Below, one piece after another: positions 2,573 through 23,429 of a stretch of 64,000 bases of DNA. Each line of letters begins with the position of its first letter. Position 1 is the first letter of the stretch. The notes below the pieces were generated by a model. It worked only from the letters and a program-made list of their open reading frames with translations, ran no database searches and was not told where the DNA came from. The stretch comes from Chiridota heheva. Taxonomy: Eukaryota; Echinodermata; Holothuroidea; Apodida; Chiridotidae. The stretch spans positions 1 through 64,000 of the forward strand of contig JAIGNY010002211.1 of the NCBI GenBank assembly GCA_020152595.1, written 5' to 3'. A program made the translations under genes and the position numbers.

Positions 2573-4207
2573 AAAGAATTATGACGGCATTGAAACAGAA
2601 CTGGCAAATTCAGATCCAACCTCTGAGCCTGAGCAACTGCCAACGCATGAACTTACCTCCACATTGCTTAAGTATAATCATGTTAGTGAGAAAGATATTC
2701 AGAAATATATCATGAAGACTCCGGCAAAATCTTGTTTGTTGGATCCAATACCAACCTGGTTCATCAAGCAGAATGTATGCATGTTTGTTCCTGTCATAAC
2801 TCAAATTGTAAACAGTTCTCTCAACACCGGCACCTTCCCAGACTCATTAAAGCACGCTATCATTTCTGCTGTCATTAAAAAGCACTCCCTCAATCCTAAT
2901 GAACTTAAGAACTATCGGCCGGTATCTAATATCACTTACCTGTCTAAAATCATTGAGAGACATGCTGTTGACAACATTGCCAGATACATAATGGATAGCA
3001 GCCTCGGAGAATCATTACAATCGGCATATAAGCCTGCATATTCTACAGAGTCTACATTGCTCAAAGTAAAAATGACATCATGGAATTTGTATCTGAGCGT
3101 AAAGGTGTGTTTCTGGCCCTGTTAGATCTCAGTGCGGTCTTCGATACTGTTAACCACCACATCTTGTTGACCAGGCTTGCAAATGAAATGGGACTGCAGG
3201 GCAATGTGCTCAAATGGATTAGTTCATATCCATCTAGAAGAACAGCCAGCGTGTGTATAGATGGCGTTCTTACTCAGCGTCTTGATTTGAGGTATGGCAT
3301 ACCACAGGGATCGATAGTTGGTCCACAACAGTTCATCATCTATACCATTCCAATTGGCAACATCCTGAGAAAGCATAATTTGCTGTTTCATATCTATGCA
3401 GATGACATTCAAGTATATACTTCTTTTTTGTCTAACAACCATAATTTCACCATGTCGGCACTTTCACAAATGTCAGCATGCATTGATGAGATCAAGTTTT
3501 GGATGACTGTTAGCAGGCTTAAGTTCAATGAGTAGAAGACCGAGTTTTTTGTGGCCATCTCTAATCACCTTAAGCACCTCCTGCCTCCTGTGACTCTTCG
3601 CGTTGGTAGTAAGATTATTCATCCGTCTGTGAGTGTACGCAATCTCGGCATTATATTTGACACTTCCATGATTATGAATACTCAAAAAACATCACTGTGC
3701 AAAAGTCTCAACTATCAGTTGCGCAATATTTCCCGAATTAGAAGATTCCTTGATATGGACACATGTCACCTTGTCGTCCGATCACTGATTCTCTCAAGGC
3801 TTGACTATGGAAATGCCCCATTGTTTGGATCCAACTCAACCGATATTCAGATACTACAACGGATACAGAACTGGGCGGATAAGCTTGTCTGCCGCGCTAC
3901 AAAGAGAGATCATGCCACACCTTACCTTAAGGAACTGCACTGGCTCCCAGTCAGGGAGAGGATAACTTTAAAGATCTTGGTCTATGTGTATAAATGCCTC
4001 CATGGTATATCACCTGGTTACCTATCATCCTGCTTTTCTTTCCACCAGCCCTCACGCTCAAACCTTTGCTCATCACTTGACGTAGCTCGCCTCATGGAAC
4101 CAAACTCTTTTAAGCTGCTCAAGTCTGCATCAAATCGCACCTTTTCTCAATTTCCCCCAAAAACTGGAATGCACTCACTGTTTCCATCAGAGAATCTGAC
4201 TCTTTAG
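2573..4207 (+). pseudogene. Reverse transcriptase part of the CR1/L2-type element
   Basis: Three overlapping open stretches (2664-3125, 3080-3535, 3551-4207) give one RT split by a frameshift near 3080-3120 and a TAG at 3533-3535. Motifs in order: SPAKSC-like fingers entry (TPAKSCLLDPIPTWF), YRPVSN, the palm motif with LDLSAVFDTVNHH, GIPQGSIVGP, the catalytic YADD (HIYADDIQVY) and the thumb region LGIIFD. The C-terminal part has LDYGNA and LKELHWLPVRERI, typical of the CR1/L2 group. The first 90 bp after the inversion point match the usual linker (ANSDPTSE) of this clade. Confidence 0.85.
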
Positions 4208-6608: not shown

Positions 6609-9600
6609 CTGATAAGAAGAAAAAAAACATCTTACAATATCACTTTTAGATTAATTGAATTAAATCATATAATGACGTGTATAATTTGGTCACATGTTGC
6701 AATCACAAAACATTGAAATGCCATTTGATCTGTTTAATTATGCATGGATTAAAAATCAAAGCATATACGAGTAGTCTTTCACTCACTGAACTGCTAAGAA
6801 GTCAAGTAGATCCAACAAACAAACATAAATCAAAAAGCAGACGTGAATTTGGATTTACTTATGATCGGATTCAAATTCATGATAAGACATTTTTGCAATT
6901 AGAACATGTTAGAGTCTAGAGAATATAGCCGCACTCTGTATCCAGCCCTCTGTAGCCCTGTGGAGTCAGTCATTCAGTCCGTCAGTATAAAAACCAGTCT
7001 TGTTTCGGGTGAAGCACTATTTTTTTACATCAAATGGTCTGAGCAGAGGAAGACTAGTGGACGTTTTTAAGAGAAAAAGATGCCAAAATTCCGAATCGTG
7101 GTTACAGTTGTCGAGGCCCTGGATATGTCGGAGCAATGCGTATAACATTTTCTGTGAAAATCACAACAATTTTGGAATAGTCTAATACCATGGTAATTTT
7201 GTCCTAGTAGACTCCCCCTTTTAAAGTTTTTTTTTTCTTTCTTTCTTTCTTTTTTGTGTTTGCCGTACGGTTACGACTGATATTCAAAATGATCAAATGA
7301 TCTGATTTTCCCGATTGTTCATTCAAAGGATCAAGTTCACCAGTCCCTAGTTTTTCTTACATGTACATGTAATTACCTTCTCGTAAGAGATGTAGACGAG
7401 TTGATCCTTTGGATGCCAGGTTTGTAATACACTTTCCTCTCAAAGTCTCTTATCTATATCTGTATTATTTTTAAAGGGTTTCATCTTAATGATTTGAGAA
7501 TCTGATCCGCATATGTAACAAAAATGAGCCATTCTGGAACAATTGACTAAGTTTCTAAAAAGTATGAGCAGTGTTGTAATTGGAGGTTAATTTGGGATGT
7601 ATTTGAATGTAGCTTATCACAGCCTATTTCGGTTTACATGCAATAAATCTTTCCTTTTCTCAACTGCCTAAAAAGTCTAATATTTTCAATACTATAAGTG
7701 TCTAACTGTATAATAAAGTATTCTTGTTTTATATTGCTTGCTGACAAAAAAAGTTAGAAATGATTAATTCAGGGATCACAAATTATCTACATGTATCTGG
7801 CATGATAGAGTGCAAACAAAACACATGATAAGAGTGCAAACGAAATAAACTCTATAGAAATGGTACTTATATCTTGTTCCGTTCAGGATATATTAAATTT
7901 TAAGTTTTGCTGAAGTTTTAGAATATTTTACTTCAATTAAGAATATTATTTCAAACATTCTTCAGATAAATCAGTAACTTTCCCAGACTCCGTGTACTCT
8001 CTTAACATATGACATAGCCATAATGCAATCTCAGAAAATATTTCCACAAAATACGCATAAATTCTTGGTAATTTTTTACATTGTGGTGTCACAACTTGTC
8101 TTATTTAAGTTATGTCAACACATATAACATTAGACTTAAATGTGAATGTCTCCCAACGGAATAATATTTTTTGCAAACGTCATTTACCTGGTTATCAATG
8201 TGTTTCTTTCGCTGTCTTTTTCACATGAACACGCATAAATACAGAACTTATATATTAAACACCTGTTCCTTTCGTTAAGAGTGCGTGAAGAAAAAAAGAT
8301 TTAAAAATTTGTAATTTTCAAAAACAAATTTCAGACTAACCCAATAACTCTCATCCAGTAGCTTGCGATGTCCTGATTTGCGGACAAAACGAAATCAAAA
8401 CGTTCTCCCGGAACAATGACCAATACATCGACAGTAACTTGTTCAAATGGACGTCCATCGGAGGTAATCACTTGAAGCTGGTGGTTGTCCACCGACACCC
8501 TCATTGGACACTCGGTGATACCGTTATTAACAACGCGAAACCGGTATTTGGTGCCTTGTATCATTGTAAATGTCCTGAGTGGTGTCGAGCCTTTCGTGTC
8601 TTTGTCTGCAGAAGATGGCGTTTTGCCTTTTCCGTCGATTAGTATGTAATCGGAATATAATGTTTCGTCACTTTTATGGTGGTATACAGCTTTGACCAGG
8701 GTTACATCATGATACCAGTCATGAACAAAGAAAGTGTGCTCAGGTAGGTCCTCGTCATACAATGAAAAATGAGGATCCCTCTGTTTTGTGTATTTTGATT
8801 AAAGAAGAAAAGATATAAGGTATTTAAGATATTTTACCTACCGGCATAACCTAGGATATAGGTAATGAAGTCCGTAAAGTTGAAATGGACGTGAATTACA
8901 ACTGTTCAAAGAGCTTTTTCAGGCTTTTGTAATTATCACAACTTATGAGAGCAAACAGATTTAACTTGAAGCTGCCTCCCTCGGGGATGCGGGATAGTAA
9001 GTTTGTGCTATAACTATCATAACTTACCTTTTTCTTCCCCCAAATTGTGGAATTGCTCAATAATATTTCGCATTGTCATTGGAGGTTGCTACTTTTGGAA
9101 AAAATGTCTTTTTAATATTCAACAAGGTTAATCATTGTTATGCTGTTTTCGAGTCACTTTAAGGGATGTATCGCTCAAATTTTACCAAGGGGACCTAAAT
9201 GGTATCAATCGATGGCCTTTTTTATCTCTAATTTTGGCATTCATGATTTTATATCATCTAAAAGACGCTTTGGTGTGCTACTCTAAAAATGTTCGCAACT
9301 CTCTGACAATAATACAAACAGGGTGGTGGTGAAGTTGACAAAATTACGGAAGGGCTTAACATCAAGTGAGGGTAGCCAGCATTTAAAAGTGTGTTTGAGA
9401 GAAGGAGGGGTGTCCAACAGTAACTTTTGGTGTCAACGTTCGAAGGACATTAAAAACATTGTTTTCAAATCGCCATCTCCACATCCCCGCCACCACCTTC
9501 CCCTCCCCATTATGGATGCCTTTCATTTCGGCGTTATGTTCTCAAATTCTAACTTTCTTCGTCCGGCAGGAAATCACTTCTAGTCGTACATCAATTTTTC

Positions 9601-12600
9601 TAGTTGTCGAAATTGGTTTGCTGCATAGAATAACTAAAGTTTCGATGCAAAAATCAATATAAGACCCTCCTTCGTCAATCATAATAAGCTTGAAATTGTA
9701 GGCCAAACATCTTACATAACAAGATGGCGTGCTAAAAAGGGTTATTCACCCTATAAAAAGCCCAAACTAAAACCACCACCACCACAAAAAACAATCAAAG
9801 ACGCCCAGAGTTAATAAAAAAAAAGAAGATCGATGTTGACTTTGAAACTGAAGCTAACTATTCACTTAAGCAAGCAACTCATTAACAACTCTTTGCGAAC
9901 AGCAGTAAATGATCTAGAACAACATCCTTATCCCCATGACATTGCAAACAACACTAGACTCACTGGCCTATGGTTAGGGGGCGAACTGCGTTCACCATAT
10001 TTAAAAATAGGAGTGACATTAGCAATTCTCCAATCACCAGGAACAACACCAACATCAAAGCACTTTGGAAAGATCATACTCAGGGGAACAGAAAGAACAT
10101 CAGGTAAGTCGCGTAAGACAGCGGAATGTATACCTTCCGGTCCGAGTGCTTTATTTGAATTCAAACCCTTCAACTTCTTAGACACAATATCAACTGAAAA
10201 ATCAACATTCGTAATGAACACTGGAGCACACTAAGATAATTCACGGCATCATCAGCAAGAGACTCCTTAGTAAAAACAGACACAAAGTAATCATTCAAAA
10301 CCTTAGCCATATCTTTACCATTATTGATAGTAACACCATCAATACCCTGAAGGGGACCAACAACCTCTTTGTTTTTTTACTTGAGCGAACATAAGAATGA
10401 AACAACTTAGGATAAATCTTAACCTCTTTGGACAAGCGTTTTTTAAAACGCACTTTAGTATCTCTTATCAAACCTTTTTGGAAATTTGCATGACCTCATA
10501 CCTAGCAAGATCCACACCCACTGTGTTTATAACAGCACCACAACTTCTTCTTTTTTCGAACAGCCCGAAAAACTTCCAGGGACATCCACACTGGCCGATT
10601 TCGTCTACAGACTTTCTTTAATGGGACAAACTTTTTTGCACCCTCTAAAACTTTATTTCGAAAAACATCGCATACTTTAGAAGGACCTACAAGCAAACAA
10701 GTCCAATCGAATGACCAATTATCCTGAAGTGCAACAAAGTCAGCATTCTTAAAGTCTAAAACCAGTTTATTAGCTGGATAAGCCATTGTGAAACAATACA
10801 GATTAAAACAAATGAGGTCATGATCACTACACCTTACCTTACTGCTACTTCGCACATTTCTAACCATACTTTCTTCACTACTGAAAATCAAATCAAGACA
10901 ATTCCTATCGCGCGTGGGAAACAGGGTAACAAAGCTGGGTGGAAAAGCAGTCGGATACATCTTTCAGAAAATCTTTACCATGTGGACCATTAGTACAAAG
11001 ATTCCGATCAATGTCTGGAAAATTAAAATAATTGTGTTCATTGTCAAAGGGTATGTGATAAATCGTAGGTATATTTATGTTAGGATATGCTAAGTCACAC
11101 ATGGCTGCAGGTGTCAGGATCTACTAAGCAGGGCAAAAAGTAGGTATATTCAAAATTTAGTCTTAGTCTTCACTGTGTTTCTGAAAACAATTTCCCGACG
11201 GTTGAGCAGATATTCCTGACAAAAGTTTCATGTTTTCCCCGAATTTAGCCTAGTCATGTCACTCAGCGTAAACTTCCAATAAGTTTGAGAATCATAACTT
11301 CTGGCACAACTTCAAGTATTTGTTTGTTACCTCAGGTGCTTGGTGAACGACAAAGGCGCCAAATAATCCATCAGCGTGGTGCAGACCATCGTGCCCGTGG
11401 TAAAAGTGTGTCCCTGTGGTGGACGCGTTGAACCTGTATACGAAGGTTGTTGCAAACGGGATAGGACACTGGGTGATCATAGATGTACCGTCCATGTGTG
11501 GGGTGTTCATCATATGAATGCCGTGCCAATGAATACACATCCCTTCATGATTGTCCAAGAGATTTCTGACGTTAACATGTACAATGTCGCCCTCGCAAAC
11601 CTACATGCAAAGAGAATCTCAAGATTAAAAATAGTCAAAACTATCACTTTTTTTATTTGCAAGCGGATAAATGATAAAAAAAAAAACTCAACTTTAACAC
11701 AATTAATAATCTGTGCCCTTTTACATGTTTTAGGAGATATGTTATTCAAGCTCTATCATATGAGATGAATTCAGAATAGAAGCGACAACTCAATACCACA
11801 CTTCTCACTTTTTTTTTGACGTCAGCAGTGTATGTAGTGATGCATAACTTTGATTGAACGTATAAAGATATTTAAGTTAAGCATCATATAACCCGAAGAA
11901 AAAAATGTTTTTTTTGAGAAAATGTTGTAACTAGGCATTGGGCCTTTCAGCAAAATAAAAAATTAGGGGAAAGCTTCACACTAAATTGCAAATCTTCAGT
12001 GATTCATTGTTTTTGTTACTAATTTGGTACTTTATATTATTTGAATTAATCCGCCATGTTATGTGCACTTAACAACCGAGGAGCACATTTTAACTATGAA
12101 AAGGGCCCATGCGCTTTTATTAGGGCTGTATATTGGGCGTATCAGGCATCAGGTCGAATATAGATCGGTTATATTCCAGAGTCAGCACATAAGGGATTAA
12201 ATCTAACCAAGTAAAAGTTGATAAAGATTGCCGATGTGTAGTGTGTTGGTTTCTCCCTCCACGTGAATAGAACATCTTCTCCTCAAAAGACTTACGTGGA
12301 TTGGTGGGCCGGGTAATTCTCGATTTACGGAAACAATAGGTCTTTTAACACCGTTTGTTGGTACACATCCTACATTATCGCAGTCAGTCAGATTTGACGG
12401 ACACCGCCCGCAAGCCACAGTCATCGTCGCATACCATTCAACCGTAAAGTCGTAAGTGCATTCCATTGGTTTGGGAGGCCAAGAACACCGGCGCACGCAG
12501 TTATGGCGAAAATAATCTTCTACAATGATGGAGATGTGATGTTAATAAAATTAATAAAGAAAATTTAATGATGCATGCACATGCAGGGATGTGGACAACG

Positions 12601-15600
12601 ATATCTATATTATCAACATACGTTAGAGCTCCACCTCCCCCTCACTTTTCAATATTGCCCTGTAGCATCCACTTCCACGTGGTTTTTCAGATATCACTAA
12701 TTCTCCCATCTCCTACATATCTTTCCTATCATCTTCTACCCAACATTCTTCGTCTAGATCACATCTCCACATCCTACCCACTAAAAAGAATTTATCAACT
12801 CATGTACCCTACATACCGCACCTAACCTAATTTTTAAAAAGTGTGGTTTCGTTTCCGAACTGTTGGTCTCAGAAGGACACACTTTACGTTGCCGACATCT
12901 ACATTTATCAGAATGATAAAGGTACAGCCCCTGTCCAACTATAAAGTATGATCAGAAATTGGATTGTTTAATTCAAATCAGAATCATCAACCAAATCAGC
13001 AGAATCTCTTTTAAAGATGTTTATCTCAATAAGGGGCTCAAATATTTAACTAATGAAAGTCCCAAATGTTTAACTTATTAAGAGACCCGACTGGTCTGCT
13101 GGTTAGGCTATTAGATTTGTTAAAGGTATCACGGACAGATGGGACATGTTATAGCTATTTGGGAAGATGCTTAAGTTGTCTAGGGAACTGATGAAATACT
13201 AAGGTCAATACCGCATGCTGGCAAGGTTTTCTTTATAGTTGTAAAATATTACACGTAATTGCTAATACAGGGATAAAGTTTTGTATTACCACTTGAAAGA
13301 TGGGTTTCACCTTAACCACTGAGGGCCGAGTCTCGTCTTTTATTGCAGTGTTTGTGCTACTTTCTTCAATAAACTGATCAGGTGATGCATTTCTAGCGGC
13401 AGTTTTTCAATAATGTACCCTGTAAAATTTCACTTTGCAAAAAACCTTCGGTACTGAGGGTGGAGCCGCTGGGGTATGTCAGTCTATGATAATAGGACCG
13501 TATCGTATGTTGAAGGATCAGGGGATGCACTGTAAGCAGGTAAAATAATTTGTTTTGTAAAATTTTCAAAAATCATTCGGGCACTGTTGGATTGTAAGAT
13601 TTTTTTTGCCCATGCACCAAAGAAATGGTGCCCAAAGTATTTAAATTTTGTTTGGATTTTATACTCTGCCAAAGGCCAATACTTTATTTTTTTCAAAATT
13701 ATTAAAAAGAAGAAAAGATTTTAGCAAAAGTAAAGGATTGAAAAGTAGCGGGCCCTGAAGGGGCAAAACTAGAAACAAACAGTGTGAGGTCATGATCAAG
13801 TAAACTCACAACTTTTGAAAAGTGTTGTTTCGTTCCCCAACTGTTGGTCTGAGAAGGACACACTTCACGCTGCCGAAATCTACATTTATTAGAATAATAA
13901 AGTTACAGCCCCTGTGCAAATATAAAATATGATCGGTTTGAATAGTTTAATTCAAATCATAATCATCAAATTAGCAGAATCTCTTTTGAAGATTTTTATT
14001 TCAATAAGGGGCTCAAATGTTTAAAGAATTAGTTCAGGAGTTAAGCAAGGTCATCTCATATGAAAGAGGACTTCAAAAGGAACAACAAAATTGAAGAAAG
14101 CAATCAAAAATATATTTCCGTTACGAATATATTTACTTTAAGGTTTGGTATCATTTGTGTAGAAAGTCAGACTGTGATGTCACAGCTTCAAAGTTTTTAT
14201 GTATTATATCATATTAAGACCTGCATTTTGTGGCTTAAAAACCATTTTATATGTCAGGAAAGTAGGAAAGCAGAATCTAGTAAAATAATTCAAGTAGTAA
14301 AAAAGTTAATGAAATTAAGCACCTCAAAAAGGTGTCGTATTCCTCCTGCCAATTTTTGTCAAAGCCATGAATAATCAAAAGAATCATAGAAATCAGACAT
14401 GTCATTTTTCGTATCGACTGAATTATCGTTAATTTTAAACCGAAACACACTTTGAACTACAAATCTTCGATTATTGACAAAAAATCCAAATTTACAATTC
14501 ATGGCCAAACATTTTTCAAGTGTTGAAAAAGGGTTAGTGGTCCTTAAAGAAATGGGAGAGTTGCAGTCCATAATTAATGAGTCAGTCGATGCGAACAAAA
14601 TGCTAATAATTCTGTTTTCTACGAACCATTTTATCAGTTTACATTTTAGTTAATTAATTGATGGCTTTGAAGAAAGATCAAGAAAAAATAATTAAAGTAG
14701 TCAAAAAGTTAATCAAATTAAATACTATGTTTTGAGTGAGTGGAGAGAGGAGGGGAAGGAGGGGAAGGGGGATACGGCACTGCTACTCTTCAAATCCAAA
14801 AAGCTTCCTACACACCTAATGAGGAATGTAGCAAACGTTTTGTCTTTAACTCTTCGTATATCTCTACAAACGGTTCAAAATTGCAACACTGAGATGGTCA
14901 GAAATTGTGAGATCCGATCAGCACTTTCTCCAAAAAGTAGATTCGTTCAGACAAGTTCACCTTTCCTCTCACACAAATTAACTTGTGTAGAATATTGTTG
15001 ATGACTGTTATCATTATAAATCTTTGCCTCTCTTACATTTAGAGTCGGATTCACTGCTTATGGGTTTAGAATTGATGTATAAAATCTAAGAGAGAATTCC
15101 CCTCCAAAATGTATCTTTTAAAACTCCATGGGATTACCGTATTTGGCACAGACGGCGGGCTGTAACCGTGTACTTGTTAAGTAAAATTAATTTCAATCTC
15201 GATATTGTAGACTCTGTTTTCCAAACATTTATGAATAAATGATCAACCTGGATCAGAATTTCGCTGAAGACCTTCCTCGAACCTCGACTTTTCTCAGACC
15301 TCGACCTTTCTTAAACCTTGACCTTTCTCGGACCTCGACCTTTTCGGACCTCGACCTTTTCGGACCTCGACCTTTCTCGGAACTTGACCTTTCTCGGAAC
15401 TTGACCTTTCTCAGACCTCGACCTTTTTCAGGCCTCGACCTTTCTCGTACCTCGACTTTTCTCGGACCTCGACCTTTTTCAAACTTTGACCTTTCTCAGA
15501 CCTCGGCCTTTTTCGGACCTCGACCTTTATCGAACCTCGACCTTTCTCAGACCTCGACCTTTGTCGGACCATGACCTTTCTCGGACCTCCACCTTTCTCG

Positions 15601-17480
15601 GACCTCGATCTTTCTCGGACCTCGACCTTTCTCGGACCTTGACCCTTCTCGGACCTCGACCTTTCTCGGACCTCGACCTTCCTCGAACCTCGTCAGGTCC
15701 CCATTGTGGTGGGTGCGTACGACATTTAGTCTCTGTCACAGATAGCACACTACTTTGGGCCAACGTTGGCCAAAGCTTAGCATACGTTGACAAATGTTGG
15801 CTTTGTGTTGGGTTGGTATGCTAACATTGTCCCAACGCTGGACCAACATTCTATACCCAACGGTTAACATGCTAACACTGTTCTTACGCTTGACCAACAT
15901 TCTATAACCAACGGTTGGCATTGTAAAATTGGCCCAACCAACGCTTGGCACACGGTTGGCAAACAGTTGGTATGCAGTGGCGTAGCCAGAAAGGGGCGAG
16001 GGGGTTGTCCGCCCTCCCCAATTTTTTTTTAAATTTGTCTATAATCCTTCGGTTCAGATTATTAATCCGTCAGGCTAGATTGGTGCCTTCAGTTCAACAA
16101 GCTTTGACATTCCAGGTGATTATCATGTCTTTAGATTTCAAAAGGGCACTTTCTTCGAAAAACGTTCATGGGTAATAATATGTTAAACATTTAAGCGATT
16201 TTATATTTAAATACCTGAACTAAGACACAAGGAGAGAGAGGAAGGGACGAGGGGGAGGTGGGTTTTGGAGTACACGTGATATAGAACAGGCTTATTTTAA
16301 AAGTTTGACAACATTTCAAAAGTTTGTAGTAAATTATTGAAAACCTTTCTTTGTCTTTTAGACAACCCATATTTTTTAAAGAGTGACAGTAAACCTAACC
16401 ATGTACGAGCTTTGACAATAAAACATTATATTTCCACATTCTGACATGACGTTTTCATGATTTTGTGTTTTGTATATTATATAGTTCTCTTTGACATGAA
16501 TTTTGAATTTTTAATACACCTTCTTATAATGCGTTGTGACATGCGTTTTTGCCCTTGAGATGTCAATTTTGCGAAGCCTTCCGGGGGCTTCGCCCCTGGA
16601 CCCCTGCCGGTCTTTCGCCCCTGGACCCCACCAGGAGCCGATTAGGCCCCTGGGCCCCACGCTGACAAGTCCATCGCTTTTGCGGTTTCATTTTGTGTTT
16701 TGTATATAATGTATTATAGCTCTATTTGACATGAATTTTGACTTGTATAATACAGCTTACTATGCGTTGTGAAATACATTTTTGTCCTTAAAATGTCAAC
16801 TTTGCGAGAGCTTCCGGGACTTCGCCCCCTGGACCCTAATGGGGCTTCGTCCTTGGACTCCTGGATCCCACGCCAACAAGTGGAGCGTTTTGCGCTTTGT
16901 ATATGGTGTGTAGTAGCTCTCTTTGACATGAATTTTGACTTGCATAATACACCTTCTTACTATGCGTTGTGACATACTTTTTTGCCCTTGAAATGTCAAT
17001 TTTTCGAGAGCATCCGGGGGCTTATCCCCCTGGACTCCAAGCAGGGCTTCGCAACTTGACTCCACCAGGGGCCCTTAAGCGGACCACTGGACCCCACGCC
17101 AAAAAATCGAACGCTTTGCGCTCTAAGTGACACCTTCGGTGTCACCTCTACTATGCCACTAAATATCGTGTCAGTTTCATTCAAAATCCACCCCCCCCCC
17201 TCCCCTCCCCTATCCTTATTATGAAAATCCTGGCTACGCCACTGTTGGTACGCACACGTTAGACCGACCATCAACCTAATCTATACGTTAAGCCAATGTA
17301 ATTCCAACATAATATACAACCTTTAGCCAACGTTTGCCTAATTAGATTGTGCCTGTATCTGGCTGTATTATTCTAGACATAATGGCATAAGGCACAATAA
17401 AAGGTAATTATAAATATCATACCATGTGAGGCATACGCGAGAGTAAAACATGTCAGCAGGGTGATCCAAATTCTGCCCAT
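6433..17480 (-). CDS. Secreted laccase-type multicopper oxidase (5 exons, 3' end outside window)
   Basis: Exons 17480-17423, 12519-12296, 11600-11331, 8780-8341 and 6608-6433 join in phase (1, 0, 0, 2, then 1 at the open end) with GT-AG introns and give 389 residues. Residues 1-19 form a signal peptide. Domain 1 follows with a Cys-rich start (HNCVRRC, ACGRCPSNLTDC, GCVPTNGVKR) and PGPPI-H-VCEGD. The first copper motifs are HWHG (H118, H120) and H162-G-H164, trinuclear-centre ligands. Domain 2 spans roughly 185-389 (FFVHDWYHD, RFRVVNNG, ITSDGRPF, PGERFDF, YWMRVIG). These oxidases couple one-electron oxidation of phenols or metals to reduction of oxygen to water and act extracellularly in cuticle, pigment or iron handling; which applies here cannot be told. 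Family members usually exceed 600 residues, so the third cupredoxin (HPxHxHG, HCHxxxH) is missing and probably lies beyond position 1. Confidence 0.9.
6609..8340. other. Laccase intron 4: no recognised feature
   Basis: AT-rich sequence with a pyrimidine tract at 7225-7252. No coding frame with family resemblance and no clear repeat was seen. Confidence 0.6.
8341..8780 (-). CDS. Laccase exon 4: cupredoxin 2
   Basis: Acceptor AAAACAG|AGGGAT and donor ATTGG|GTTAGT, ending in phase 2. Contains DPHFSLYDEDLPEH, VHDWYH, the LIDGKG turn, TKYRFRVVNNG, DNHQLQVITSDG and YWMRVIG, the standard non-copper-binding middle domain. Confidence 0.93.
8781..9831. other. Laccase intron 3, remaining part
   Basis: No recognised feature. 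A CCACCACC run at 9771-9784 and several short open frames without family resemblance. Confidence 0.55.
9832..11102 (-). pseudogene. Jockey/CR1-group non-LTR retrotransposon fragment in laccase intron 3
   Basis: Reads right to left, the same direction as the laccase. 11102-10905 gives the end of an endonuclease domain (HNYFNFPDIDRN), continued in another frame at 10960-10502 (RDRNCLDLIFSS, CSDHDLICFNL, then the linker WMSLEVFRAVRKKKKLW). 10221-9928 gives the RT entry (LNSNKALGPEGIHSAVLRDL, PGDWRIANVTPIFKYG, NHRPVSL). A further shifted frame holds VVCNVM near 9940. The RT palm with catalytic Asp residues is missing, so the copy is truncated at its 3' end and dead. Confidence 0.75.
11331..11600 (-). 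CDS. Laccase exon 3: first copper ligands
   Basis: Acceptor GCATGTAG|GTTTGC and donor CCTGAG|GTAACA, 270 bp, phase 0 at both ends. It carries HWHG, MDGTSMITQCPI and GTHFYHGHDGLHHADGLFG. The usual HSH and QRxDG are here HGH and HHADG, conservative changes that keep both copper-binding histidines. Confidence 0.93.
11601..12295. other. Laccase intron 2: nothing recognised
   Basis: AT-rich, with homopolymer runs at 11679 and 11811. No repeat or coding feature seen. Confidence 0.6.
12296..12519 (-). CDS. Laccase exon 2: first half of cupredoxin 1
   Basis: Acceptor TTGTAG|AAGATT and donor ATCCAC|GTAAGT. It encodes the Cys-rich N-terminal block typical of animal laccases, through the NRELPGPPI motif, ending in phase 0 before VCEGD in exon 3. 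Confidence 0.9.
12836..13052. repeat. Direct repeat copy A (about 215 bp)
   Basis: Shares long blocks with 13818-14025: GTTGGTCT-AGAAGGACACACTT, ACAGCCCCTGT, AATCATCAA, AGCAGAATCTCTTTT and AATAAGGGGCTCAAAT. The copies are about 85 per cent alike by eye and are 980 bp apart in the same intron of the laccase gene. Confidence 0.8.
13818..14025. repeat. Direct repeat copy B (about 208 bp)
   Basis: The partner of 12836-13052. It is immediately followed by a member of another dispersed family at 14026. The 13053-13817 spacer shows no recognised feature. Confidence 0.8.
14026..14260 (+). repeat. Dispersed repeat family member (GAATTAGTTCAGGAGTTAAG type)
   Basis: Shares TTAGTTCAGG, TATGAAAGAGGACTT, a CAAAAAT-ATTTCCGTTA block and TTTGTGTAGAAA in the same order with 25015-25240, 39172-39400 and (inverted) 39560-39750. 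Non-coding; probably an unnamed MITE or SINE-like family. Confidence 0.65.
14261..15235. other. Laccase intron 1, unassigned part
   Basis: AT-rich. A second, weak block resembling the end of the neighbouring family lies near 14640-14715 (AATTAAAGTAGTCAAAAAG). Purine-rich GGAGGGGAAGG near 14748-14770. No gene seen. Confidence 0.5.
15262..15695. repeat. 17-bp minisatellite, about 25 units
   Basis: Units of CTTTCTCGGACCTCGAC with point changes (CAGACC, GAACTT, TTTCGG) fill this stretch. The open frames here on both strands (PRPFSDLDLSRTSTF and similar) only reflect the repeat. Confidence 0.93.
15755..15974. repeat. Imperfect CCAACGTTGG-rich repeat tract
   Basis: Repeats of roughly 20 to 50 bp built on CCAACGTTGGC, GCTTGGCACACGTTGG and GACCAACATTCTATA. 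The tract continues after the hAT element (17253-17340, CCAATGTAATTCC, CCAACGTTTGCC), so the hAT copy inserted into it. Confidence 0.75.
15975..17244. mobile_element. Non-autonomous hAT transposon, 1270 bp
   Basis: Termini CAGTGGCGTAGCCAG (15975-15989) and CTGGCTACGCCACTG (17230-17244) are perfect 15-bp inverted repeats, with the CAG...CTG ends usual for hAT transposons. They are flanked by TTGGTATG (15967-15974) and TTGGTACG (17245-17252), an 8-bp target duplication with one mismatch, the hAT length. There is no transposase. The interior holds three tandem units of about 210 bp, so it depends on a partner transposase. Confidence 0.9.
16460..17115. repeat. Three tandem ~210-bp units inside the hAT element
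   Basis: Each unit runs TTTGACATGAATTTTGA, then ATACACCTTCTTA, TGCGTTGTGACAT, TTTTGCCCTTGA-ATGTCAA, then a GC-rich hairpin-forming block with GGGGCTTCGCCCC-TGGACCCC and ends CAACAAGT or similar. Units begin near 16490, 16727 and 16920. Confidence 0.8.
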
Positions 17481-19390: not shown

Positions 19391-20850
19391 TAAAGAAAAA
19401 TGTGTAGAAATATAATGTGTAGACCACTCAGAAATGAGAGTTTTAATACTTATCAACACCTGATAAAAATTTATATCAATCATTTCGTGTAGATCATGTT
19501 TGCAAAATGTTATTCCTAACAAATCAAATATATGAGAGCGGTTCCACTTAATATCCATCTTGGATATATACGCAAAGGAACCAATACTTGTAACGATGGA
19601 TTTATCTAGATGAATACGAAGACCTGATATCCATCAAATTATTAAACATGCCCATGCAGAAGAAAAGCATGAAAACAGGGGCCTTAGCCAAAGAGGGGGA
19701 AGGTTTTGCGTGGCAGGGCCCCACCCCCCCCTCCCCCAGCGTGGCCGGGCCGCACCCCCTCTTCCTTCCCCCAACTTTATGGTCGTCGGCAAATTGAACA
19801 TGCTTGTCAGCAAAACAAAAAGGGAGAAGGAAAAGAAAAAGAGGGAAAAGAAAAAGAAAGAGAAAAAAAGGAAGGAAATTAAAAAATGAGAAGAAGAGGT
19901 AGAAGAAAGTGGTTAATCATGTTTTCGGCCTTACGAACAGACGGAGTAGTCAGTACGGTACCGGTACATTGCATTTTACTGACAACAAGAGATTTTCCAA
20001 CAAACGGTCAATTAGTTGTTGTTTTTTCTTTCTGTCACTGCAATACTGAACATCGCATTTCCCGACAAAGAAGATTAAATTCCGACAAAAGTCTGAACGT
20101 CGTTTTTCTTTCCACCATTTTCTTCTGAACCGATGAACATATTCCGGTAGGGGCGTAGCCAAGAGTGGGGGGTGGGGGTGGTCTTTGGCAAATTTGAAAA
20201 CCTTGTTGGCTCATGGGTGTAAATGAACTTGAAAGTTTAACGCAAACGTAAGCATAAACCCTTAGTTTTTGAAGGTTAACAATTTCTTGCTTCCTTTTGG
20301 ATATAACTTAGATGGCGTAGGAACAGGGGGTCAGGGCCCCCAATAATATTATTGAGGGCCAAGTATCATTTTGCCCCCACCCCATTAATGAAAGTCTAAC
20401 CGATTTTGAAGAGTCAGATTCCATCATGGCATCTTCAATTGGATTGAGAAATTGTTCGAGAAATCTTCAATTTTCCCAAAATTTTCGAAATTTGCTTCGG
20501 TCAATTTTCATAAAAGTTGTTCCTACAGTTTCACCATGCGTATGGTGATTAATTCTCACCATGTCAGGTATGTATAGCAAGAAAATTAACTGCGCTCACT
20601 GGATGAAGCCCGTTTTTGTCCAATGACTTACAAACTAATACTATTACATTTACACGTTGGCCTACAGATTTATGATAAATAAAATCTGCCCACCTATACA
20701 GGTGGAGGACTGAGGCTTTGGGGCATCGGACTACAGTAAGCGGGGAACCCCCCATCCCTCCCCCTCCCCGAGAAAATTTAACCCTGCCGATTGCATGTTT
20801 TTTTTTCCGCTTGAGAGGTTGAAATGGAAAATCATGATTAAAATTAAACC
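19391..20850. other. Intergenic, with two hAT-end-like pieces
   Basis: GGGGCGTAGCCAAG near 20151 and GATGGCGTAGGAACAGGGGG near 20311 resemble hAT termini like those at 15975, but no partner end or target duplication could be assigned. A G/C-rich stretch at 19690-19770 and a purine-rich tract (GGAGAAGGAAAAG repeats) at 19820-19905. No gene seen. Confidence 0.4.
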
Positions 20851-21090
20851 AATTTGGTCAAATTTATGGACATTTGGTCAAATTATTGAAATATTTGGTA
20901 AACCTTTGATACATTTCCCAAAAATTGAAGATTTTCCGATTAGCAGAGCAACGTTGATCAGTGGAAACAAAAATGGATTCTCGTTTCATAAAAATTGCTT
21001 CAAGTTGACCCGTCACCAATATATCCGATACATACTAGTAACGTCACTACCGCGGAGGAAGCGATTGGTTTGTCGGTAATTGCATCAATA
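20840..21090. repeat. Segmental copy A carrying one 20-bp unit
   Basis: Shares with 21160-22140 the blocks TTTCCCGAAAATTAAAGATTTCC-like, AGCAACGTTTGAT, CACCAATATAT-CGATACATA, CTAGTAACGTCACTACCGCG and GATTGGTTTGTCGGT. Here the 20-bp unit occurs once (21039-21058). Confidence 0.8.
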
Positions 21091-21320
21091 TTTCAACTGT
21101 TCTGAAATGTTGGCTGCAGTGTATTGCCATGTCCACCAGCGCAATTTTTCGCTTGTAACCGGGAATTGTGAAATTATTGCTATATTAGGTAAACATTGGA
21201 ATGATTTCCCGAAAATTAAATGAGATTTCCCGATTAGCAGCAACGTTTGATAAAAATAAAGAGGGATTCTCGGCTCATGGAAATTGCTTGGCCCGTCACC
21301 AATATATACGATACATACTA

Positions 21321-22100
21321 GTAACGTCACTACCGCGGAGGTAACGTCACTACCGCGGAGGTAACGTCACTACCGCGGAGGTAACGTCACTACCGCGGAG
21401 GTAACGTCACTACCGCGGAGGTAACGTCACTACCGCGGAGGTAACGTCACTACCGCGGAGGTAACGTCACTACCGCGGAGGTAACGTCACTACCGCGGAG
21501 GTAACGTCACTACCGCGGAGGTAACGTCACTACCGCGGAGGTAACGTCACTACCGCGGAGGTAACGTCACTACCGCGGAGGTAACGTCACTACCGCGGAG
21601 GTAACGTCACTACCGCGGAGGTAACGTCACTACCGCGGAGGTAACGTCACTACCGCGGAGGTAACGTCACTACCGCGGAGGTAACGTCACTACCGCGGAG
21701 GTAACGTCACTACCGCGGAGGTAACGTCACTACCGCGGAGGTAACGTCACTACCGCGGAGGTAACGTCACTACCGCGGAGGTAACGTCACTACCGCGGAG
21801 GTAACGTCACTACCGCGGAGGTAACGTCACTACCGCGGAGGTAACGTCACTACCGCGGAGGTAACGTCACTACCGCGGAGGTAACGTCACTACCGCGGAG
21901 GTAACGTCACTACCGCGGAGGTAACGTCACTACCGCGGAGGTAACGTCACTACCGCGGAGGTAACGTCACTACCGCGGAGGTAACGTCACTACCGCGGAG
22001 GTAACGTCACTACCGCGGAGGTAACGTCACTACCGCGGAGGTAACGTCACTACCGCGGAGGTAACGTCACTACCGCGGAGGTAACGTCACTACCGCGGAG
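21321..22100. repeat. Perfect 20-bp tandem array, 39 identical units
   Basis: The unit GTAACGTCACTACCGCGGAG is repeated 39 times with no change. It lies inside segmental copy B (21160-22140), whose sister copy A has a single unit, so the array is a local 1-to-39 expansion. Each unit holds ACGTCA (a CREB/ATF half-site, TGACGT on the other strand), CCGCGG and two CpGs. Confidence 0.98.
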
Positions 22101-22140
22101 GTAAGTGATTGGCTTGTCGGTGATTGGGTAAATATTTCAA

Positions 22141-23425
22141 TCTAAAACGGTGACCATTAGAGCTACTACATGGAGAGCTGTCATCACAGGTGCAGAAAGC
22201 GGGGGCAAGAGTGGTGATTGTTCAGATGAAAAACTGGAGGAAAACTATCATTTCGCCCCCGTGCAGCAAAAAATGGGTAGAAAGAAATTCAAAATAGGAA
22301 TAAGTATATCGGGACCATGTAAATTTGCAATTATTTTGATTTAAGATGATGGCAAAAGGCGGAAATTTTAAATAATGTATATAATTGGCACGGGTCCGAA
22401 AATCTCAGCTTTCATTTGGCCAAAGCAAAATTTCAATTATTTCGATATAAAATAATGGAGCGGAGGAAGGTTTGGGTGGAGGGAGGAAGAAGGAGGAGAA
22501 GATGGGGGGGGGGGGGGGGGGAGGTGGCAAAACAGGAATTTGTAACCAAAATATAAGATTTTTTATTTTTTATTCTAATAAATACAATCGTAGTGCTTCC
22601 GGGGCGTTGATTCTGGGCCCCAATCAGATATTTTGAAACATTTACTTGGTTTATAATCACAACATATTTTATTAAGTTTGCGAATTTCTTCTGAATTTAA
22701 TAGTTTACTTCGCCTTAAAAATGAAATTTTGTCATTTTTGACCGAACTAAGCTTTTATTTGGCTCTCACATGAATACAATCGTAGCGCTATGTTCTGGCC
22801 TCACCAGGTAAGAATATGGAAAACTTAATTTAGATTTATTGAATTTTATGCCCACCCATCTGCCCATCTTATGCTCCATACTCAACCTTCCGTCCCATGG
22901 AACACATCATTTTTCATTTTATCGCTGTACCCTTCAATTTCGAGGGGACAAAATAAATTATTTTCTGATTCAATGGTTTCCCTTATTTGGACATTTCCTA
23001 ATAATAATCTACCATTTTGCGATTACTGACAGCAAATTTTCAGCATTTTGTTAGTTAATTCCGCAATTCCGAAAACTGAATTTTCAAATAAGATTTCTAG
23101 GGATGCTAGTGTGAGTATGTGCGTGTATGTATATGCGTGTGTGTGTATGTGTGTTGGGAGGGGAGGCACTATGCTCTACCGAAGTAAGTTGCTAAGGTAT
23201 GATTCTATAGCGTGTTTCAATCACATTCCTTCTGGGAAATATCATTTAATTTTTAGAAAACTACCTTCATTCCCGTGCACTTTTTTCAATTTGGGGCATT
23301 TTTTGGGAAATTTTCTTTATCAGGAAATAGAGTCAATTTTCATCAATTATCTGGAAATGTTGCCAAATATTATTGAAATTGCCACTGATTTCACCTCATT
23401 TTCCTTCAATCTTATGTTTATAAGT
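22141..23425. other. Intergenic, simple tracts only
   Basis: A G-run at 22505-22521 and purine-rich flanks, and a (GT)n-like stretch at 23112-23155 (GTGTGTATGT). Two copies of ATACAATCGTAG-GCT near 22583 and 22773. No gene recognised. Confidence 0.5.
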
Positions 23426-23429
23426 CTCA

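What the first reader, a model, noticed from the sequence alone, without database searches (positions are those of the whole stretch)
21321..22100. 39 perfectly identical 20-bp units expanded from a single copy
A degenerate sister segment 280 bp away (20840-21090) contains the same 20-mer once with matching flanks. The array has zero divergence, so the expansion is very recent or an assembly artefact. Each unit offers a TGACGT half-site and a CCGCGG, giving 39 evenly spaced CREB/ATF-type and CpG sites two helical turns apart, between two divergent genes.
Basis: partly seen in the sequence, partly recalled or inferred. Interest (0 to 1): 0.7.

Follow-up and report, generated by a model that had tools for sequence, protein, structure and literature searches.

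The report
Very young perfect 20-bp minisatellite
A short stretch of what looks like animal DNA has been copied head-to-tail 39 times without a single difference, beside an older relative of the same stretch that still holds one copy; it looks like a newly born, ordinary minisatellite rather than a regulatory device.

Summary
Confirmed: window 21321-22104 is an exact 20-bp tandem array, 39.2 copies, no mismatch or indel. A diverged direct duplicate 283 bp upstream holds the same 20-mer once (21038-21057). Outside the unit the two copies differ at 41 of 194 ungapped sites (K2P 0.25). The expansion therefore came long after the local duplication: on a star genealogy the units' ancestor is at most about 3% as old.

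The likely birth is by the known minisatellite route. The expanded copy has GTAA at both edges of the unit; the unexpanded sister has GAAG at its right edge. This is only suggestive: 2.8-3.4% of 20-bp segments in the window have as much flank homology.

The regulatory reading is weak. ACGTCA/TGACGT and CCGCGG occur 39 times each as copies of one seed, the full CRE palindrome is absent, and 20 bp is 1.9 helical turns. 'Divergent genes' is not shown: laccase exons lie about 9 kb to the left (minus strand), and the nearest other candidate is a weak CHCH-type ORF at 60 kb, but only a minority of ORFs was scanned. Copy number could be an assembly error. Genome-wide checks could not be run: the genome search did not complete.

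The parts
21321..22104 (+). Perfect minisatellite: 39 exact copies of GTAACGTCACTACCGCGGAG plus a terminal partial unit GTAA
21038..21057 (+). The same 20-mer, single copy, in the unexpanded sister segment
20877..21100 (+). Sister segment: diverged direct duplicate of the array's flanks (K2P about 0.25 outside the unit)
21168..21320 (+). Left flank of the array, paralogous to the sister segment
22101..22140 (+). Right flank of the array (GTAAGTGATTGG...), paralogous to the sister; its first 4 bases are the second GTAA of the microhomology pair

Best explanation
It is a newborn minisatellite (VNTR-type locus) in non-coding DNA of an animal-like genome. Steps. (1) A segment of roughly 220 bp was duplicated in direct orientation and the copies diverged to K2P 0.25 (the divergence is shown; a local duplication is the inferred cause). 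(2) The right-hand copy carries GTAA at both edges of a 16-bp core, 20 bp apart (shown). Slipped-strand mispairing or microhomology-mediated repair between these made the first tandem duplicate (inferred). (3) Further slippage, unequal exchange or gene conversion, or one reiterative burst, took it to 39 copies so recently that no unit has mutated (homogeneity shown on the assembly as given; recency and route inferred). The left-hand copy reads GAAG instead of GTAA at the right edge and stayed single (shown; causal link inferred). No regulatory function is needed to explain it.
For: Exact 784-bp periodicity ending in a 4-bp partial unit. Single-copy sister with matching flanks: 41 of 194 ungapped sites differ outside the unit, K2P 0.25; zero changes in 784 bp bounds divergence since the units' ancestor at about 0.4% under a star genealogy, about 3% of the duplication's age. 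117 CpG intact, o/e 1.67 against 0.60 in the rest of the window. The array has stops in all six frames, longest open stretch 19 codons. The window holds other direct repeats at short range and many other tandem arrays (66 TRF rows, some overlapping), so the region is prone to tandem duplication. Short flanking direct repeats, or an incomplete terminal unit, are the marks of two published models of minisatellite birth: passages of PMC3389668 and PMC6947457 citing Haber and Louis 1998, and of PMC3389668 citing Taylor and Breden 2000 (the two originals were not read).
Against: The microhomology is only 4 bp, while the cited Haber-Louis model speaks of 5-10 bp, and 2.8-3.4% of 20-bp segments in the window have as much. 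The partial unit is 4 of 20 bp, whereas PMC3389668 counted terminal units at most 10% shorter than full, and says that the two models account for only 6% of its transposon-derived arrays. Whether the sister lost the T or the array copy gained it is unknown. The CpG argument for youth is weakened by the flanks, which are not CpG-depleted either (o/e 1.25 at 20801-21100, 1.1 at 21101-21320). A hairpin drive is not supported: tandem repeats of shuffled units fold as well in 94-228 of 1000 cases. Copy number was not checked on reads.
Confidence: 0.72

Rival explanations
1. Assembly or polishing artefact: the locus has fewer units, or has variant units that a consensus step homogenised.
For: Zero variation in 784 bp; copy number in such arrays is often wrong in assemblies (general knowledge).
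Against: Other arrays in the same window keep many variants: the 24-bp array at 42148-43243 is 91% matching with 27 distinct of 45 fixed-register blocks, the 65-bp array at 48665-49774 has 17 distinct of 17 (fixed blocks overcount variants where indels shift the register). No N in the window.
Confidence: 0.13
2. Cis-regulatory array: selected expansion of a CRE-like/CpG-rich element (homotypic cluster, or a new CpG island) acting on a nearby gene.
For: 39 ACGTCA and 39 CCGCGG. The block around the unit is unusually well kept between the duplicates: longest identical run of 36 ungapped columns, reached in 163 of 20000 column shuffles.
Against: Sites are copies of one seed; no perfect CRE in the array; spacing is off-phase; 10 ORFs between 12206 and 28485 scanned gave no Pfam match above cut-off (65 of the 75 kept's filter in that stretch were not scanned), and the nearest recognised exon is about 9 kb off. 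The longest-run test was chosen after looking.
Confidence: 0.05
3. The segment pair belongs to a dispersed transposable element family whose members carry this 20-bp array at variable copy number, so that the array was amplified elsewhere and inserted here.
For: Two copies of the segment exist; tandem arrays inside transposable elements are known (passages).
Against: A two-copy profile finds no third copy in 64 kb above its inclusion threshold (two weak minus-strand hits, E 0.29 and 0.8, at 23.2-23.4 kb); both copies lie close together, as in local duplication. The rest of the genome could not be searched.
Confidence: 0.1

Closest known systems
Minisatellites/VNTRs born by slippage between short direct repeats (Haber and Louis 1998, as cited in passages of PMC3389668 and PMC6947457; Taylor and Breden 2000, as cited in passages of PMC3389668)
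   Same: 20-bp unit, short direct repeat at both edges, incomplete terminal unit, unexpanded paralogue beside it
   Different: Microhomology is 4 bp rather than the 5-10 bp of the cited model; the partial unit is only 4 of 20 bp; 39 units with zero divergence
CRE / CREB-ATF homotypic site clusters (recalled, no call)
   Same: TGACGT half-site in each unit
   Different: No full TGACGTCA in the array; spacing 1.9 turns; no linked gene or occupancy data

Membership tests
Minisatellite / VNTR locus | Head-to-tail units of roughly 10-100 bp, array of hundreds of bp, non-coding | tested here: met
Minisatellite / VNTR locus | Copy number varies between individuals | not testable with these tools
   no reads or second individual
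Haber-Louis/Taylor-Breden type of minisatellite birth | Short direct repeat (5-10 bp in the cited model) at both edges of the unit, or incomplete terminal unit | tested here: inconclusive
   GTAA at both edges, absent in the sister; 4 bp only, background 2.8-3.4%; criteria from passages
CREB/ATF-responsive element | Perfect CRE palindrome TGACGTCA | tested here: not met
   0 in the array; 39 x TAACGTCA and 39 half-sites
CREB/ATF-responsive element | Factor binding and linked promoter | not testable with these tools
   no ChIP or expression data
Bidirectional intergenic region | Array lies between two divergently transcribed genes | tested here: inconclusive
   minus-strand laccase exons at 8331-8762 and about 12206-12541; no plus-strand gene recognised close by, but only 24 distinct ORFs were scanned in the whole window
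Dispersed repeat / transposon-borne array | Further copies of the segment elsewhere | tested here: inconclusive
   none in 64 kb beyond the pair above threshold; genome search unanswered

The most novel reading that the evidence does not exclude
The array arose in a single reiterative-synthesis burst from one copy to about 39 identical copies, triggered by a one-base indel that created the GTAA/GTAA microhomology. The neighbouring paralogue, which lacks it, would be a natural unexpanded control, and the burst made a new 784-bp CpG-island-like block.
Probability: 0.1. Interest if true: 0.45.

Novelty: new member of a known kind. Interest (0 to 1): 0.22.

Why it matters
If the copy number is real, this is a clean snapshot of minisatellite birth: seed, unexpanded paralogue and fully homogeneous expanded allele side by side, useful as a marker and as a test of microhomology-primed expansion. 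It is not evidence of a regulatory switch.

Tried and rejected
Hairpin-driven expansion: four units of the bottom strand fold at -21.4 kcal/mol, z -3.82 against ordinary dinucleotide shuffles (top strand -18.4, z -2.28). Against four-fold repeats of shuffled units the array is unremarkable: bottom strand 101 of 1000 (base shuffles) and 94 of 1000 (dinucleotide) fold as well, top strand 154 and 228. Rejected as a special feature.

Coding repeat: rejected, stops in all six frames.

Splice-donor idea: the right junction reads GAG|GTAAGT (22098-22106), one of 2 such 9-mers in the window, 0.37 expected, 4 of 100 shuffles with as many. The form with A or C first gave 5 matches, none in the array, 1.02 expected. 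There is no exon evidence; kept as a note only.

RNA families at Rfam's gathering scores and tRNAs: none in the window. A 30-base stretch of the array (one and a half units) had no exact match in viral contigs or genome contigs; these hold viruses and prokaryotes, so this says little about an animal genome.

Paper searches: (CREB with VNTR terms, at least 4 of 5 terms) and one search listed nothing. Only passages of PMC3389668 and PMC6947457 were read; the other papers were seen as search listings only.

Full report
Observation. The array is exact. TRF reports 21321-22104, period 20, 39.2 copies, 100% matches. A script extends exact periodicity over the same 784 bp. A pattern search with up to 3 mismatches finds 40 copies, all perfect: 39 in the array and one at 21038-21057; 100 shuffles give none. 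Of the 66 TRF rows in the window, five are 100% matching; this is the only one of those with a period above 3 and more than three copies.

Sister segment. BLASTN aligns the upstream segment to the array's left flank (148/186) and to the last unit with the right flank (53/60). With one unit kept in each, the core alignment has 41 differences in 194 ungapped sites outside the unit (22 transitions, 19 transversions), K2P 0.25, and 15 gap columns. The unit itself is identical. The longest identical run in the 214 ungapped columns is 36, reached in 163 of 20000 column shuffles, so the block around the unit is somewhat better kept than the rest. This test was chosen after seeing the alignment. Constraint, local gene conversion or chance are all possible. 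A two-copy profile finds no third copy in the window above its inclusion threshold; two weak minus-strand hits (E 0.29 and 0.8) lie at 23.2-23.4 kb.

Age. No change in 784 bp gives a 95% bound of about 0.0038 substitutions per site since the units' common ancestor if they radiated as a star, against about 0.125 per lineage for the duplicates, a ratio of about 0.03. Other genealogies or ongoing homogenisation loosen this bound for the age of the first expansion. The array holds 117 CpG with o/e 1.67, the rest of the window 0.60. Intact CpGs fit a very young or germline-unmethylated array, but this is weak evidence: the duplicated flanks are not CpG-depleted either (o/e 1.25 at 20801-21100 and 1.1 at 21101-21320).

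Origin. The right copy reads GTAA-CGTCACTACCGCGGAG-GTAAGTGATTGG with the array reduced to one unit. The sister reads GTAA-CGTCACTACCGCGGAG-GAAGCGATTGG. Thus only the expanded copy has GTAA on both sides. One published model of minisatellite birth invokes short direct repeats at the edges, another an incomplete terminal unit (passages of PMC3389668 and PMC6947457). The fit is partial: the repeat is 4 bp, below the 5-10 bp named there; PMC3389668 counted terminal units at most 10% short, here 4 of 20 bp remain; and that paper says the two models account for only 6% of its transposon-derived arrays. Of 20-bp segments in the window, 2.8% (TRF arrays masked) to 3.4% (whole window) have at least 4 bp of flank homology. 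I treat the seed as suggestive. Hairpin stability is not unusual once repetition itself is in the null.

Function. The units do contain a TGACGT half-site on the minus strand and a CCGCGG palindrome, but these are copies of a seed already present once in the sister. The array has no TGACGTCA. Twenty bp is 1.9 turns at 10.5 bp per turn (general knowledge), so the sites are not in phase. The array does not encode protein.

Gene context. ORF 8331-8762 (minus) matches Pfam Cu-oxidase at 4.4e-27 and solved laccases. ORF 12206-12541 (minus) matches Laccase BP76 at 5.9e-15, though its Pfam match (Cu-oxidase_3, E 0.19) is below cut-off. They are probably exons of one laccase gene whose 5' side faces the array, about 9 kb away (inference). 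To the right I recognised retroelement fragments (51883-52362 and 52787-53554) and a plus-strand ORF at 60006-60398 with sub-threshold CHCH-type matches (E 0.012; E 0.13 to CHCHD1/mS37). In all, 24 distinct ORFs were scanned against Pfam, against 268 of at least 55 residues that pass a complexity filter, so genes, and short exons above all, can have been missed. The window looks like animal DNA by content (laccase, LINE-type reverse transcriptases, 38.2% GC); the species was not determined.

Artefact. Other arrays in the window retain variation, so the assembly does not homogenise repeats in general. Copy number remains unverified.

Verdict. A very homogeneous, probably young minisatellite of ordinary kind, with an informative unexpanded paralogue; the regulatory story is not supported beyond the presence of motifs.

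Noticed in passing
window 8331-8762 and 12206-12541 (-): Probable exons of a laccase-type multicopper oxidase gene.
   Followed up: partly
window 60006-60398 (+): ORF with a sub-threshold CHCH-domain match; from recall it resembles the C-terminus of MIC19/CHCHD3.
   Followed up: partly
window 42148-43243 and 48665-49774: Two other long minisatellites (24 bp x 45.8 and 65 bp x 17.1, both 91% matching) that keep unit variants.
   Followed up: partly
window 22098-22106 (+): Right array junction reads GAG|GTAAGT, a consensus splice donor (recalled consensus); each unit junction reads GAG|GTAACG.
   Followed up: partly
window 46007-46720, 16460-17117, 23422-24079, 12829-14024, 40479-41136: Further diverged direct duplicates at short range (73-86% identity), as with the sister segment.
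   Followed up: no
window 2664-3535, 51883-53554: Fragments of retroelements: reverse transcriptase (3080-3535 and 51883-52362; 2664-3125 below cut-off) and RNase H (52787-53554).
   Followed up: no
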